Assembly: GCF_000243135.2 (NCBI RefSeq)
Contig: NC_019903.1
Location: 2,704,001 to 2,768,000 of the forward strand
DNA: 64,000 nt
Reading direction: 5' to 3'
Source of the DNA: Desulfitobacterium dichloroeliminans LMG P-21439
GTDB taxonomy: Bacteria > Bacillota > Desulfitobacteriia > Desulfitobacteriales > Desulfitobacteriaceae
This document shows positions 77 to 23,022 of the stretch, in pieces. The notes below the pieces were generated by a model, which saw only the letters and a list, made by a program, of their open reading frames with translations, did not search any database and was not told the DNA's origin. Both the position numbers and the translations under genes were made by a program. Position 1 is the first letter of the stretch. The number at the start of each line of letters is the position of its first letter.

Positions 77-152
77 GTATAACAGAGGAGTCCCGCAACT
101 TGAGGATGATGAATGTGGTTGGGACGCTGCGGGACTCCCCAGAACGTTAGGC
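77..152 (+). repeat. attC-like recombination site 1
   Basis: A 76-bp imperfect inverted repeat. The left end is GTATAAC (77-83) and the right end GTTAGGC (146-152), a perfect match to the integron R' core GTTRRRY. An inner perfect 11-bp stem pairs GGAGTCCCGCA (87-97) with TGCGGGACTCC (128-138). Between the outer TAAC/GTTA pairing and the inner stem lies an unequal unpaired segment, as in the central spacer of attC hairpins, and about 30 nt form the terminal loop. Two more sites of exactly the same length occur at 1769 and 2542. No integrase gene is in the window. Confidence 0.65.
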
Positions 153-260
153 GAAATGTCCATTCCCAAGCATTGTTTTCCGTCTTACTTGTGCATGCAT
201 TTTTTTGTGCCTATGGTGTATGAGGATTATGAATGATAAAAGGCCCCCTAATTAGAGGAC

Positions 261-14330: not shown

Positions 14331-15275
14331 TTATCTACTCTCCTTTAAATATGCAAGTAGCTTTTCAAGAGAAGTTAAATCCTCTGCATTCAGCAGCGTT
14401 ACTCCGGGGAGAATTTTCTTAACTAAACCTGTTAAAACCTTCCCCGGCCCCAGCTCAATAAAGGTATCCACCCCTTGCTCTCCAAGGTAGCGGATGGTTT
14501 GCTCCCAGAGCACCGCTCCACTCACTTGGCCAACTAAGCTTTCCACAATAACTCCCTGATCGGTAACTTCAGCCGCATCGATATTGGAGATAACCGGGGC
14601 ACTGGGCTGTTGCCATTGTATAGATTCGAGCACTGGGCGCAAATCCCTTCCTACTCCCTTCATTAAAGGTGAGTGAAAGGGGCCACTGACAGCTAGGGGT
14701 ATGGCTCGTTTCGCCCCTAGTTCTTTGGCATATTGACATGCTATTTGAACCGCGTCTGTCTCTCCGGAGATAACAATCTGACCGGGCGAATTATAATTGG
14801 CCGGTCCCACAACTCCATCGGCTTCCGACCCGGCCCTTTGGCAGGCTTCTTCCACCTTAAGGCCCTCTAAGCCAAGGATAGCCGCCATAGCCCCCTGACC
14901 CTCGGGAACAGCCGCTTGCATCAATTCACCCCGTCGACGCACTACCCTTAAGGCATCCGCCAAGGAAATACTTCCGGCTGCCACATAAGCAGAATACTCC
15001 CCAAGACTATGACCGGCAAAATAATCAGGTCTCAGCCCTGACTCTTGAATCCCCCGCCAGGCTGCCACACTGGCCAGCAAGATTGCCGGCTGGGTATTCG
15101 CGGTTTTTTTCAATTCCTCATCGGGCCCTTCAAAGAGAACCCGTATAAATTCTTCCCCAAGAATTCGCTTGCCAGTCTCTAACACTTCATTTCCCCAAGA
15201 GGTAGCGAAGAGATCTTTGCCCATCCCTACATATTGGGAGCCCTGACCGGGGAAGATACAGGCTATTTTCGTCAA
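14331..15275 (-). CDS. fabD: Malonyl-CoA:ACP transacylase
   Basis: 314 residues. Transfers malonyl from CoA to ACP. FPGQGSQYVGMG at the start, the nucleophile Ser in GHSLGEYSA (near 90), and the catalytic His in GPFHSPLMKG (near 200). The start is TTG at 15275, supported by AAAGGAG 8 nt upstream and by normal family length; a longer frame upstream reads into the repeat region and is rejected. The 780-bp gap before it is unusual for this operon. Confidence 0.94.
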   Translation of the reverse strand: MTKIACIFPGQGSQYVGMGKDLFATSWGNEVLETGKRILGEEFIRVLFEGPDEELKKTANTQPAILLASVAAWRGIQESGLRPDYFAGHSLGEYSAYVAAGSISLADALRVVRRRGELMQAAVPEGQGAMAAILGLEGLKVEEACQRAGSEADGVVGPANYNSPGQIVISGETDAVQIACQYAKELGAKRAIPLAVSGPFHSPLMKGVGRDLRPVLESIQWQQPSAPVISNIDAAEVTDQGVIVESLVGQVSGAVLWEQTIRYLGEQGVDTFIELGPGKVLTGLVKKILPGVTLLNAEDLTSLEKLLAYLKESR

Positions 15276-15345
15276 ATCGGTTGCTCCTTTCGGCTCTTTT
15301 TTGGGGTCATATATCAGGTCGTATTTTCGAGTCATTGCTCGGGTC

Positions 15346-15643
15346 GTGTAGCTTTTCGCACATCGGACCTTCGGGCGTGAGCCCCTGAAACCCTCCACCG
15401 GAGGCTTTCTTCATCGGATCTCACGTACTCAGTAGCTCCGGGGCTGGCGCTCTCGCTTTCGGGGGAGCTATGCCAAACCCTTCTGCTTACAGCATGTGAA
15501 CCAGTGGCGCCGCTACCCCCCCGAAAGCATCGTTCGCCTGAACACCCCTCCGCTAAAATCGCTACCTTCGGGCGTGAACTCCTGAAACCCTCCACTGGAG
15601 GCTTTCTTTTTCGGAGCTCACGACTCCTGTGCGAAAAGCTACG
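15346..15643. repeat. Structured repeat element A between fabK and fabD
   Basis: A 298-bp unit bounded by inverted copies of GTAGCTTTTCGCACA (from 15348) and TGTGCGAAAAGCTAC (to 15643). Inside are two 59-bp direct copies (15367-15425 and 15564-15622; about 9 in 10 bases equal), each containing two small hairpins: GGGC-GTGA-GCCC in copy 1 and CCTCC-ac-(C/T)GGAGG in both. The core carries an 11-bp inverted repeat, GCTTTCGGGGG/CCCCCGAAAGC. No believable protein. It may be a non-autonomous mobile element or a structured RNA. Confidence 0.6.
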
Positions 15644-15717
15644 CTTGCAGGTCTTTTGAAACAAAAAAATAGGCACTCTCTGACCCGAGAGAATACTAAT
15701 TCTGAAGAAGCGGCCCA

Positions 15718-15991
15718 AGGACTTTGCTTTACAGCAGAGAACGGCTTCTAAGCGAGCAGCTACCCGTTCTTCGCGAAAAGCTTGCAGCGGAGTCGGGTTG
15801 GAAACAGGACGTTTCTAACCCGCTAGAGAGCCAAGGATGGCGATTTAGCGGGACGAAAGCCGGATGAGGCTTTCGCCCAAGCCACAGCACCACAGACGAA
15901 AACATAGTGGCGCAGGTCCCGACGGAGCGGTAAGCTTGAGCGTTAGAACGGGTGCGCGCAACTTACAGAGTGAACGCGTAAAACAAAGTCC
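15718..15991. repeat. Structured repeat element B between fabK and fabD
   Basis: About 274 bp bounded by the inverted pair GGACTTTGCTTTAC (from 15719) and GTAAAACAAAGTCC (to 15989). Nested inside are ACCCGTTCT/AGAACGGGT and GTCGGG/CCCGAC inverted pairs, giving a long imperfect hairpin. It shares the GCGAAAAGCT core with the ends of element A, and has loosely similar segments (GCGATTTAGCGG) in the opposite orientation, so the two may be diverged, inverted relatives. Confidence 0.45.
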
Positions 15992-16052
15992 TAGAGAACC
16001 TTACTCAAATACAGCAAAGTCCCAAAAAAATCTACTCGAACCGAAGGCCAAG

Positions 16053-17000
16053 CTACTTCCCAAACCGCTCTCGAAGCCGCGCCAGCTCCCGCTCAGCCCC
16101 CTCCATCACATCTCGAACGATCTCAGCCGCCGACTCAATCTTCTCAACCGCCCCGGCAATCTGCCCGGACATCACCGACCCATTCTGGGTATCTCCTTCA
16201 ACCATGGCCAAGCGCAGTTTTCCGGCCCCCATCTTTTCCAGCTCTTCCGGCGGAGTTCCCGCCTTTTCCAGCTGATCAAATTCACGGGTTAATTTATTGC
16301 CTAGGCAACGAACGGGATGACCTGTGGAACGTCCGGTTACGACAGTATCCCGATCCTTAGCTTTGATCACCATCTCTTTAACCTTCGGGGAAATGGTGCA
16401 CTCGGTCGCACACATAAAGCGAGTCCCCATCTGGACCCCCTCAGCCCCTAGAGCTAAGGCAGCAATCATCCCTCGTCCATCATAGATTCCACCCGCAGCA
16501 ATGACAGGGATACTTACCGCATCAACAACCTGTGGAACAAGGGGTAAAGTGCAAATTTCACCGATATGACCACCGGATTCCATGCCTTCGGCAATCAGCG
16601 CATCGACCCCTGCCTTTTCTAAACGCTTGGCTAAGGCCACCGAAGCTACCACCGGAATTATTTTGGTGCCGATTTCTTTAAGCATCGGGATATATTTACC
16701 GGGGTTCCCTGCTCCTGTCGTGATGACCGGAACGCGTTCCTCGACAATGACTTGCATGACGTCCTCAACAAAAGGAGACATAAGCATCACATTGACCCCA
16801 TAGGGTTTGCTTGTAATTTTTTTGATCTTATGAATTTCTTGTCTCAGCCAATCGGCAGGGGCCTGCCCAGCACCGATAATTCCTAAGCCTCCCGCTTCGG
16901 ATACCGCGGCAGCGAGTTCTCCAGTAGCGGTCCAAGCCATACCCCCCTGAAAAATCGGATGCTCAATACCTATGAGATCACAAATCTTTGTTTTTATCAC
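16053..17000 (-). CDS. fabK: Enoyl-ACP reductase II (FMN-dependent)
   Basis: 315 residues. FabK reduces trans-2-enoyl-ACP with NAD(P)H through FMN, replacing FabI in many Firmicutes. Motifs: HPIFQGGMAW (14-23), GVNVMLMSP, AEGMESGGHIGE, PVIAAGGIYDGRG and GAEGVQMGTRF. No FabI/FabL is in the window, so this is the likely essential reductase. It follows fabH by 3 bp and is separated from fabD by the repeat elements. Confidence 0.92.
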   Translation of the reverse strand: MIKTKICDLIGIEHPIFQGGMAWTATGELAAAVSEAGGLGIIGAGQAPADWLRQEIHKIKKITSKPYGVNVMLMSPFVEDVMQVIVEERVPVITTGAGNPGKYIPMLKEIGTKIIPVVASVALAKRLEKAGVDALIAEGMESGGHIGEICTLPLVPQVVDAVSIPVIAAGGIYDGRGMIAALALGAEGVQMGTRFMCATECTISPKVKEMVIKAKDRDTVVTGRSTGHPVRCLGNKLTREFDQLEKAGTPPEELEKMGAGKLRLAMVEGDTQNGSVMSGQIAGAVEKIESAAEIVRDVMEGAERELARLRERFGK

Positions 17001-19796: not shown

Positions 19797-22244
19797 TCAT
19801 TTTAGCTTCTGCTGAGCTCGAAAGAAATCTTGCCAAGGGTCAGCGCCGGCCATCCTCGCGAGCGCCTCCGCCATATCGATACCGTCTGGGGCAATCGTGT
19901 CAAGTTCATCCCAGTCGATAGGCATCGATACCTTAGCTCCTTTTCTTGTTCTTAAGGAATAGGGGGCAATGCTGGTAGCCCCTCTGCCGTTGCGAATCCA
20001 GTCGATAAATATTTTGCCTGCTCGCTTTGCCTTTCTAACATTGCTTGTATATCGGTCAGGCCATTTTTGCTCCATCACCTCGGCAACACCCCGAGCAAAG
20101 CTATAAAACACTTCCCAGGAAACGGAGGGTTCTAAAGGAACAACCACATGATAACCTTTGCCGCCGCTGGTCTTAAGATAGGCGTTCAGGGAAAGCTCAC
20201 TAAGAATACTTTTAACATCCCGCACCCCCTGACGCACCCTGCTTAGATCCATTCCTTCATCCGGATCTAGATCGAATACCATCAGATCAGGTTTTTCCAG
20301 TACCTCGATACGGCTTCCCCATGTATGAAATTCTAGCGTCCCCATCTGTGCTTCTGAAATAAGTCCCAGTTTGTTCTCAATATAGAAATAATCTTCAATT
20401 TCCCCACTGCCGGTGGTGATCGGAAGAGTGATGATTCCCTTGCTGTCCGGACCGGGATGCTTTTTATAGAAGCAAGTCTGCGAGATGCCCTTGGGACAGC
20501 GTACAATACTAAGGACTCGGTAACTTACATGGGGCAGCATACGTTCCGACACCATTTCGTAATAGCGGACCACATCCGCTTTTGAAATTTTAGGTTCTTC
20601 AAACATCACCTTATCCGGATTGGTAATTTTTATTCCAGCGATGACGATACTGTTGTCCTTTGTTACCATTTTGCTCTCCAATTCTTTTGGATTCTCCGCT
20701 TCTTGGGGACTATCTAATTCATTGATGGTCGTTTCTTTTTGGATATCCCGAGGATGCTTATCTGCCTGCAAGCCTTTAAAGCTTGCTTGCCTCAACCGCT
20801 GATCTTCTGTCCATTCAGCAAATTTAATTTCCGCGACCAGTTGAGGTTCAAGCCAAGTAATTCTTTCATTAGATCTTGCCTGGGGTGCTTCTTTGAAAGA
20901 CGGCTCCGCCTTGTGTAGGCTTCTGAAATGTTCCGCCAGCTTCTTTCTTTCACGTTCACTGAACCCCGTTCCGGCGCGTCCGCAATAGATGAAATCCTCG
21001 CCTTCATAGATTCCAAGCAGAAGCGAGCTTACTCCGCTGGTTTTTTTGTCGGATAGCGTATATCCCCCAATGACAAAATTCCGCCTTTGCTCACATTTCA
21101 GTTTGATCCAGTCCCCGTTTCTCGTTGACCTGTATAAGGAATCCATTCTTTTACCGATGATTCCCTCCAGACCTGCCTCACAGGCAGCAAGAAAGCTCTC
21201 CTTTCCCTTGCCGATAACATGTCGGCTGTAGTAAATGCTTCCGGGCGCATCCTTTAGCAAAGCTTCAAGGGCAGCTTTTCTGTCGATAAGGGGCCGTCCT
21301 CGCAGATCCATACCATCTAACGCCAGAAGATCAAAGACGATATAGGTTAAGCTTTGCTCCTGGGGGTTCTTCAGATAGTTTTGCAGCGCCTGGAAATCTG
21401 TCTTGCCCTCAGGATTCGTGATGGTCATTTCCCCATCGAGAATCATTGCCCTTCCGGCAGCCATAGTGATGAGGGCAGTAGCCACCCCTGAAAACCGTCT
21501 AGTATAATCATTGTCGTTCCTAGTCATCAACCGGACGCTATTGCCTTCCACAAACGCCAAAATCCGATAGCCGTCATACTTCAACTCATAAAGCCAATCC
21601 TCACCCACAGGAACCTTGGTTATCAGCTTGGCCAGTTGTACATCCGCTCTGTCAAAGGGGTTCCTTGTGATTTTTGTCTCGGCACCGGCTGCGATTTCTG
21701 ACATGGAGCGGTCGGTCCGGATGCTGGTGGTAAATGTGGCAATCCCTACTTCGTTTTTGGCATGTTCATCTTTTTCTTTCAACAAAAGCCAGTTATCCCT
21801 CGTCTCTCCGTCCTTCGATTTCAGCCGGACCAAGGCCCATTTTCCCTTAAGCCGTCTTCCGTGCAGAACGAACTTCAGGCTACCTTCAATCAGCCCTTCA
21901 TCCACATTGCCACGAGGCTCCCATAAGCCCTCATCCCAGAGCATGACCACGCCGCCACCATATTCGCCCTTGGGAATCATCCCCTCAAAGTTCCTGTATT
22001 CAAGAGGGTGATCCTCCACTTGGACAGCAAGCCTCTTGTCATGTGTATTATAGGAAGGACCCTTAGGTACAGCCCAACTCAAAAGAGCCCCCTGCCATTC
22101 CAAGCGCAAATCATAGTGGTCATTGCGGGCTAGATGGTGTTGGACAACAAATCTTAACTGCTCATCAGAATCTATTTTCCCTTCAGGCTCCAGCGTTTTA
22201 GTAAAATTTCTTTTTTCGTTGTATTCACTTAGCCGCCCCGTCAT
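19797..22244 (-). CDS. ligD: NHEJ DNA ligase LigD (phosphoesterase-ligase-polymerase)
   Basis: 815 residues, three domains in the order PE (about 20-165; HYDLRLEW and MIPKGEYGGG), ATP-dependent ligase (about 205-500; the adenylated Lys is K222 in YELKYDGYR), and archaeal-type primase/polymerase (about 535-810; VFDLDPDEGMD metal-binding Asp pair). It repairs double-strand breaks with Ku. This domain order matches the Pseudomonas type rather than the Bacillus LIG-POL type. It follows ku by 4 bp, so the two are one operon. Confidence 0.95.
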   Translation of the reverse strand: MTGRLSEYNEKRNFTKTLEPEGKIDSDEQLRFVVQHHLARNDHYDLRLEWQGALLSWAVPKGPSYNTHDKRLAVQVEDHPLEYRNFEGMIPKGEYGGGVVMLWDEGLWEPRGNVDEGLIEGSLKFVLHGRRLKGKWALVRLKSKDGETRDNWLLLKEKDEHAKNEVGIATFTTSIRTDRSMSEIAAGAETKITRNPFDRADVQLAKLITKVPVGEDWLYELKYDGYRILAFVEGNSVRLMTRNDNDYTRRFSGVATALITMAAGRAMILDGEMTITNPEGKTDFQALQNYLKNPQEQSLTYIVFDLLALDGMDLRGRPLIDRKAALEALLKDAPGSIYYSRHVIGKGKESFLAACEAGLEGIIGKRMDSLYRSTRNGDWIKLKCEQRRNFVIGGYTLSDKKTSGVSSLLLGIYEGEDFIYCGRAGTGFSERERKKLAEHFRSLHKAEPSFKEAPQARSNERITWLEPQLVAEIKFAEWTEDQRLRQASFKGLQADKHPRDIQKETTINELDSPQEAENPKELESKMVTKDNSIVIAGIKITNPDKVMFEEPKISKADVVRYYEMVSERMLPHVSYRVLSIVRCPKGISQTCFYKKHPGPDSKGIITLPITTGSGEIEDYFYIENKLGLISEAQMGTLEFHTWGSRIEVLEKPDLMVFDLDPDEGMDLSRVRQGVRDVKSILSELSLNAYLKTSGGKGYHVVVPLEPSVSWEVFYSFARGVAEVMEQKWPDRYTSNVRKAKRAGKIFIDWIRNGRGATSIAPYSLRTRKGAKVSMPIDWDELDTIAPDGIDMAEALARMAGADPWQDFFRAQQKLK

Positions 22245-22248
22245 AAAC

Positions 22249-23022
22249 TTACGCTAATTCCTTGACTTTTTGGGCTTTATCGACGCTGGCCCTGAGGGCT
22301 TCCATCAGGTCGATGACTTTTCCGGTGTTGCCAGCCTCCGCTGCAACGACCTCCTTGCCGGAGATTTTTGACTCGATGAGCATGCGAAGTTTTTCTTGGT
22401 ATTCATCCTTATATTGGGTGGGGTCAAAGGGTGTGTCCATGGCATTGATCAGCATTTTTGCCATAGTGAGTTCCTGCTCCGATATATCCGGTTTCGAATA
22501 CTGTTTTTGCAACTCTTTAATATCTTCAGCATAGAACATCGTGGCAATGAGGATTCCATCTTCCCGGGGGATAATCGCCATCAAAGTATCCTTTGTGCCC
22601 ATGACAGTTTTCCCAATGGCAATTTTCTGTTCGTTCATCAGCGCGGCACGTAACAGCTCGAAGGCTTTTTCACCCCCTGCCTCAGGTGCAGCCTGATAGG
22701 TTTTATTATAATAGACGGGAGAAATCTGGTTCAATTCGGCAAAATGCAGAATCTGGATAGATTTTTCTTTTTCAGTCTTAATCTTTTCGATTTCTTCTTC
22801 GGTAACGACAACATACTTACCATCATCATACTCGTACCCTTTGACAATGTCTTTCGCGGTTATTTCCTTGTCGCAATGAGCGCAGGTTTTTTTATACCGT
22901 ATACGACTTTTGTCTTCCTTATGTAGTTGATTAAAATGAATATCATTGTCTTGGGTAGCTGTGTACATGGCGATGGGAATCGCGACCATGCCGAATGTGA
23001 TTACTGATTTACGCGAGATCAT
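22249..23022 (-). CDS. ku: Ku homodimer, NHEJ DNA end-binding protein
   Basis: 257 residues, normal for bacterial Ku. N-terminal beta-barrel starting RKSVITFGMVAIPI, with HFNQLHKEDKSRIRYKKTCAHCDKEI cut by the usual CxxC (AHC-K). The C-terminus is basic (KAQKVKELA) and recruits LigD. GGAGGTG lies 8 nt before the ATG. Coupled to ligD downstream. Confidence 0.96.
   Translation of the reverse strand: MISRKSVITFGMVAIPIAMYTATQDNDIHFNQLHKEDKSRIRYKKTCAHCDKEITAKDIVKGYEYDDGKYVVVTEEEIEKIKTEKEKSIQILHFAELNQISPVYYNKTYQAAPEAGGEKAFELLRAALMNEQKIAIGKTVMGTKDTLMAIIPREDGILIATMFYAEDIKELQKQYSKPDISEQELTMAKMLINAMDTPFDPTQYKDEYQEKLRMLIESKISGKEVVAAEAGNTGKVIDLMEALRASVDKAQKVKELA

What the first reader, a model, noticed from the sequence alone, without database searches (positions are those of the whole stretch)
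15346..15643. Repeat element A: 298-bp inverted-repeat unit with internal 59-bp direct repeats inside the fab operon
Seen: 15-bp terminal inverted repeats, two 59-bp copies with two hairpins each, and an 11-bp inner inverted repeat; no protein. It separates fabK and fabD, which should be nearly contiguous. It may be a non-autonomous mobile element, or a transcribed structured RNA that affects fabD expression.
Basis: partly seen in the sequence, partly recalled or inferred. Interest (0 to 1): 0.62.

Follow-up and report, generated by a model that had tools for sequence, protein, structure and literature searches.

The report
Mobile structured-RNA repeat inside fab operon
The odd 298-base block between two fatty-acid genes is one copy of a large, apparently undescribed family of scattered, intricately folded non-coding repeats that occurs throughout a whole class of bacteria and moves by an unidentified route.

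Summary
Element A (15341-15654) is one arm of a larger insert (A plus a related element B, 15718-15992) between the fabK stop and the fabD ribosome site. The same junction is 3 nt long in a sister species. A is one of roughly 10 to 75 dispersed copies per genome in this genus. Its base unit is 196 nt; the two 59-bp repeats are optional hairpin arms added in steps of about 62 nt. A covariance model finds full-length relatives in 47 of 62 well-completed genomes of the class. Helices are kept by two-sided base changes (38 of 60 pairs in a plain alignment). Wobble pairs favour one strand, the fab operon's strand here, so that strand probably acts as RNA (or single-stranded DNA). One genome has at least 14 near-identical copies at unrelated sites, so the family is or was recently mobile. 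I found no flanking duplication, no gene inside, and no link to REP-associated Y1 transposases. Best reading: a new family of mobile structured-RNA repeats, BOX- or REP-like in behaviour but a member of neither.

The parts
15341..15654 (-). Element A, from AGACC to GACCC on the minus (sense) strand: base unit of the family plus two H arms
15628..15642 (-). 5' arm of closing stem P1 (sense)
   Evidence: covarying stem
15348..15362 (-). 3' arm of closing stem P1 (sense)
15564..15622 (-). H arm 1 (59 nt, nested hairpin), optional module
15426..15563 (-). Core of A (model R1 positions 27-176 match 15420-15570, 118 bits)
15367..15425 (-). H arm 2 (59 nt), optional module
15718..15992 (+). Element B, related stem-closed repeat in divergent orientation to A
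   Evidence: B-type copies match R1 on the opposite strand in sister loci; the window's own B does not score (4.4 bits)
15291..16052 (.). Whole insert between fabK stop and fabD ribosome site (762 nt; 3 nt in G001)
16053..17000 (-). fabK-like gene (Pfam NMO)
14331..15276 (-). fabD-like gene (Pfam Acyl_transf_1), TTG start at 15276 after AAAGGAG at 15290

Best explanation
A is a copy of a non-autonomous interspersed repeat whose minus strand encodes a conserved fold of about 195 nt: a long closing stem, a chain of helices and a nearly invariant tip (GCCACnGGUUCACnUCAGGUAUUACCCnGAGGUUUGGC). Shown by sequence: multiple copies, modular H arms, divergent pairing with B, an insert between fabK and fabD shared by this genome and G002 and absent from G001, class-wide distribution, compensatory evolution, wobble asymmetry, recent dispersal in G041. 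Inferred: the folded single strand, most likely RNA, is what an unknown trans-acting machinery recognises when it copies the element into intergenic DNA; once inserted it is inherited vertically and partly homogenised with its sister copies. In the fab operon it would be co-transcribed as a folded spacer; fabD keeps its own ribosome site, so a mild polar or stability effect is possible but secondary.
For: Copies: own; genus. Discrete inner lengths 177-180, 228-247, about 292-306, 354-366 and 433 nt. Compensatory changes: 22 of 41 pairs in A1, a MAFFT alignment of 38 copies; 38 of 60 in A3, a MAFFT alignment of 25 copies, covariation 0.404 against 0.174 shuffled; 49 of 53 in model-fitted A4, 66 rows. 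Sense-strand wobble against the opposite mismatch: 39:9 in A1, 92:20 in A4. Class-wide: 47 of 62 genomes at E<=1e-5. Empty site: G001 has GATAG-GGG-AAAGGAG, own genome 762 nt, G002 about 610 nt. Recent mobility: 13 further loci of G041 share with L251 only 239-257 nt at 97.3-99.6% in place, flanks otherwise unrelated but for short repeat pieces. No inner gene: all 36 TIR pairs listed in G001 span at most 360 nt.
Against: No transcript was seen and no mobilising enzyme identified. A strand-specific single-stranded DNA would also give one-sided wobble. Many insertion sites are shared between sister species (flank matches for 14 G001/G002 pairs), so movement is rare in this genus. A3 and A4 rows were found with a structure model, which favours paired copies. 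The window's own B does not match R1. 15 of 62 genomes of the class have no match.
Confidence: 0.7

Rival explanations
1. REP/REPIN-like ssDNA element moved by a RAYT or IS200/IS605 (Y1) transposase.
For: Palindromic, intergenic, divergent pairs resemble BIMEs; P1 begins with GTAG in this genus; strand bias fits ssDNA.
Against: Y1_Tnp is absent from the own genome and from 15 genomes that carry the element, out of 22 without Y1; Spearman between copy numbers -0.015, p 0.91, n 62. No R1 match at E<=0.1 in the stretches of 5.0-6.3 kb around 20 Y1/RAYT-like genes, chosen from the rows. GTAG is not conserved in other genera.
Confidence: 0.12
2. Classical MITE: internally deleted DDE insertion sequence, moved by a transposase acting on the terminal inverted repeats.
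For: Terminal inverted repeats, no gene, many copies.
Against: The terminal stem sequence changes freely while pairing is kept, unlike a sequence-specific transposase site; no target duplication (5.0 against 4.9 permuted, 20 loci of G074); no TIR pair with room for a gene in G001.
Confidence: 0.12
3. Cis-regulatory or processing RNA for fabD and other host operons.
For: Deep structural conservation; same-strand placement in the fab operon in own genome and G002.
Against: No orientation preference (sense co-directional 22, antisense 24, convergent 12, divergent 8 of 66); four of the five relatives examined have no insert at fabD; Rfam has no match.
Confidence: 0.06
4. Host-maintained structural or protein-binding RNA/DNA (for example a CsrA-type sponge or a chromosome architecture element) that spreads only by occasional duplication.
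For: Repeated GGA-containing conserved motifs in the sense strand (by reading); orthologous copies kept in G076/G077; weak TwoAYGGAY similarity of B, 24 bits, below cut-off.
Against: Near-identical dispersed copies in G041, tandem units in G022 and highly variable copy number including zero.
Confidence: 0.15

Closest known systems
BOX elements of Streptococcus pneumoniae (PMC3049150; passages read)
   Same: Modular intergenic repeat with inverted ends, optional inner module in variable number, predicted RNA fold.
   Different: BOX is reported to cause target duplications; none found here. Here a core fold of about 195 nt is kept across a whole class.
REP / REPIN / BIME with RAYT (PMC3116915, PMC3733652; passages read; PMC2817692 only the start of the abstract)
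   Same: Extragenic palindromes, inverted pairs and tandem arrays, non-autonomous.
   Different: REPs are 20-40 bp with a GTAG foot and a RAYT; here 195 nt, no conserved GTAG, no RAYT link.
bcr1 of the Bacillus cereus group (table rows and one reference seen in PMC2267715; otherwise recalled)
   Same: Repeat of about 150 bp with a conserved fold and mobile-element character.
   Different: Named as specific to one species group; not compared by sequence here.
TwoAYGGAY RNA (RF01731)
   Same: Weak resemblance of part of B.
   Different: 24.4 bits against a cut-off of 43; A itself gives no match.

Membership tests
REP/REPIN | Association with a RAYT (Y1) transposase gene | tested here: not met
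   Own genome 0 Y1; no correlation over 62 genomes; 0 of 20 Y1/RAYT-like loci with an R1 match nearby
REP/REPIN | 20-40 bp palindrome with GTAG (or CGTC) at one end | tested here: not met
   196-nt unit; stem start GTAGC only in some genera
BOX-type modular MITE | Inverted ends with optional inner modules | tested here: met
BOX-type modular MITE | Target site duplication | tested here: not met
   G074, 20 loci: mean longest flank repeat 5.0, permuted 4.9, 180 of 500 permutations at least as high (an earlier version with offset windows, agrees); G041 flanks are heptad repeats and cannot be judged
BOX-type modular MITE | Partner insertion sequence with the same ends | tested here: inconclusive
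   None between the 36 TIR pairs of G001; other genomes not searched for this
Rfam RNA families | Score over a family's gathering cut-off | tested here: not met
   Window: no match among 4227 families; ten loci at E<=1 give no match on A
Structured RNA | Compensatory changes in several helices above controls | tested here: met
Structured RNA | Transcription | not testable with these tools
   no expression data

The most novel reading that the evidence does not exclude
The element is a selfish mobile RNA of bacteria: the folded transcript itself is the moving form, copied back into DNA by a trans-acting reverse transcriptase or similar enzyme, a bacterial analogue of a SINE that has persisted across a whole class, with interchangeable hairpin arms and divergent pairing.
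Probability: 0.25. Interest if true: 0.92.

Novelty: new variant of a known kind. Interest (0 to 1): 0.64.

Why it matters
Small bacterial repeats are usually confined to a species or genus and tied to a known kind of transposase. Here a fold of 50-60 base pairs is kept by compensatory change across a class while its stem sequences are largely rewritten, copies have moved recently in at least one lineage, and Y1 enzymes are not needed. That makes the questions of what moves it, and whether it moves as RNA, directly testable. It also accounts for many unannotated intergenic stretches in these genomes and corrects the annotation of an essential operon.

Tried and rejected
Rejected: RAYT/IS200 dependence. 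Rejected: presence in phage, plasmid or viral collections (all empty; two exact patterns and blastn of two copies only). Rejected: two Rhodobacteraceae hits of an H-module pattern in genome contigs show no surrounding element and were set aside as coincidental. Rejected: a known Rfam family. Rejected: GGGTC ends as target duplication; left and right variants often disagree within a copy (by reading). Considered: CsrA-type binding because of repeated GGA motifs; recalled, not tested. Literature searches aimed at this repeat listed nothing that describes it; only listings were seen for those, and most subscription papers are not held. Not done: a model search beyond the class (genome search exhausted), a leading/lagging strand test, any expression test, a search for a reverse transcriptase whose presence follows the element.

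Limits: neighbour-gene calls are a crude longest-ORF heuristic on 66 of the 89 loci examined (the others had no clearly delimited element). The ortholog/paralog comparison covers 8 of 14 pairs; in 7 of 8 at least one side has a closer paralog, in 6 of 8 both, but the paralog is the best of many, so homogenisation is only suggested. R1 counts per genome are lower bounds because the number of candidates scored was capped. E-values of R1 are rough. In one search, 8 of 53 pairs were left out before counting.

Full report
The block is real. The repeat finder gives a 15-nt perfect inverted repeat at 15348-15362 / 15628-15642 and two 59-nt repeats at 15367-15425 and 15564-15622 with 90% identity. Both strands fold far better than shuffles, the minus strand most (z -5.6 and -7.5). 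The genes on either side are fabD-like (Acyl_transf_1) and fabK-like (Pfam NMO), both on the minus strand. fabD starts at a TTG at 15276 behind AAAGGAG at 15290.

It is a repeat. Blastn of 15330-15660 finds 11 separate places of at least 59 bits in the own genome, this one included. Of three other genomes of the genus, two have 52 and 66 matching pieces and one, 82% complete, none; the covariance model described below does find copies in that third genome (20 matches). A 16-nt end motif with up to 2 mismatches occurs 41+42 times in G001 and 75+78 times in G002, against reversed-pattern controls of 3+0 and 1+0, and 6+7 times in the own genome against 1+2. In G001 the 83 sites form 36 inward-facing pairs spanning 94-360 nt and 11 singles, so no pair encloses a gene.

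The unit is modular. Inner lengths cluster at 177-180, 228-247, about 292-306, 354-366 and 433 nt, steps of about 62 nt, near the size of the 59-nt H arm. H copies (33 found, 20 distinct) share a nested hairpin with a few two-sided changes, though several pairs are broken in some copies. The base unit is 196 nt; this window's copy is the base unit with an H arm on each side of the core. At orthologous sites of G001 and G002 the length differs by about one arm, for example 255 against 196 nt.

A is half of a pair. Flank comparison shows a second repeat, B, beside A in most G001 and G002 loci; here it is 15718-15992. B-type copies of sister loci match the A model on the opposite strand: L169 43.9 bits, L101 39.5, L121 37.8, L115 and L160 34.5, and in other genera inverted partners of 79-90 bits (L192, L204, L191/L195). 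The window's own B scores only 4.4 bits, so its kinship with A rests on the sister copies.

The insert has an empty site. In G001 the fabK stop is followed by GGG and the fabD ribosome site; the own genome has 762 nt there and G002 about 610 nt, with a base-unit A lacking H arms. G003, G006 and G035 also have short junctions. So the insert was present in a common ancestor of the own genome and G002, or entered each; it has gained or lost arms since.

The fold is conserved. In A1 (38 base units gathered by blastn and end motif, aligned by MAFFT) 22 of 41 predicted pairs have two-sided changes. Model R1 was built from 30 of these units in sense orientation. It finds the element at E<=0.01 in 41 of 45 genomes of the family, at E<=1e-6 in 48 of 73 genomes of the order and at E<=1e-5 in 47 of 62 genomes of the class with at least 90% completeness, including 6 of 8 genomes of another family outside the order. 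In other genera the closing stem is rewritten (GTAGCTTTACGC becomes GGGCGGCTTCGA) yet pairs, and the tip is almost invariant. On the MAFFT alignment A3 of 25 copies 38 of 60 pairs change on both sides, covariation 0.404 against 0.174 for shuffles and at most 0.083 for slid structures. On A4, which is fitted to the model, the figures are 49 of 53 and 0.648 against 0.186. A3 and A4 rows were found with the model, so they lean towards it; A1 was not, except that its closing stem was required to pair in at least 12 of 15 positions.

One strand matters. If only the double strand mattered, G-U pairs and A-C mismatches should be about equally common on a given strand. On the sense (minus) strand wobble pairs outnumber the opposite mismatch 39 to 9 in A1, at 18 against 6 of 40 pair positions, and 92 to 20 in A4, at 31 against 13 of 45 positions, 8 of 53 pairs left out. 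Related rows are not independent, A4 was aligned with a sense-strand model, and single-stranded DNA would show the same.

It moves. G041 has at least 14 copies; 13 of them share 239-257 nt with L251 at 97.3-99.6% identity, the flanks otherwise unrelated but for short repeat pieces, and are flanked by degenerate heptad repeats. G022 carries three tandem units with a period of about 212 nt at a contig end. In G074, which has no Y1 transposase gene, copies up to 93% identical end close to the unit borders. By contrast 14 G001/G002 pairs and several G076/G077 loci share sites, so in those lineages most insertions are old.

What moves it is not known. Y1 transposases were tested because REPs depend on them: copy numbers are uncorrelated over 62 genomes (Spearman -0.015, p 0.91), 15 of 22 genomes without Y1 have the element, 8 of 40 with Y1 lack it, and 0 of 20 Y1/RAYT-like loci have a model match in stretches of 5.0-6.3 kb. 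No direct repeats flank 20 G074 copies (5.0 against 4.9 permuted). Plasmid, phage and viral collections gave nothing.

Regulation of fabD is a weak reading: among 66 delimited copies the sense strand is co-directional with both neighbours in 22, antisense to both in 24, between convergent genes in 12 and between divergent genes in 8 (crude gene calling).

Against what is known: passages of PMC3049150 describe BOX as modular, with inverted ends, target duplications and extensive RNA folds; passages of PMC3116915 and PMC3733652 describe REPs as short, GTAG-tagged and RAYT-linked. PMC3733652 and PMC2267715 hold no mention of Desulfitobacterium or Heliobacterium in their main text. This family works like BOX and REPs but fails the target-duplication and RAYT tests. 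Names of genomes are not given by the tools; from contig lengths I recall G002 as Desulfitobacterium dehalogenans and G076 as Heliomicrobium modesticaldum, untested.

Noticed in passing
window 79-158, 1814-1848, 2544-2623: Another short hairpin-like repeat family (80 nt, 84% identity, plus a 35-nt piece), not compared with A.
   Followed up: no
window 19797-23022: Two adjacent genes that look like a LigD-type ligase and Ku (end joining); by reading the translations only.
   Followed up: no
L018:1503-1731: Own-genome hybrid: A-type ends around a B-type core, which suggests module exchange.
   Followed up: partly
L251-L263, L266 (G041): Degenerate heptad repeats (TGACTCC, TGAATTC and, upstream, reverse complements) beside each mobile copy, which could extend the closing stem.
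   Followed up: partly
L267 (G022:C253 end): Three tandem copies of the unit with a period of about 212 nt.
   Followed up: no
L188 (G003), 1013-1389: Three further model matches on the minus strand at 145-nt spacing, each about 86 nt, beside a full unit.
   Followed up: no
L208:1958-2049 (-): Glycine riboswitch (62.8 bits) in a flank of an element copy; probably coincidental.
   Followed up: no
L037:1501-1530 (own genome, 3181529-3181546 -): Minimal remnant: both ends of the element joined with no core.
   Followed up: no
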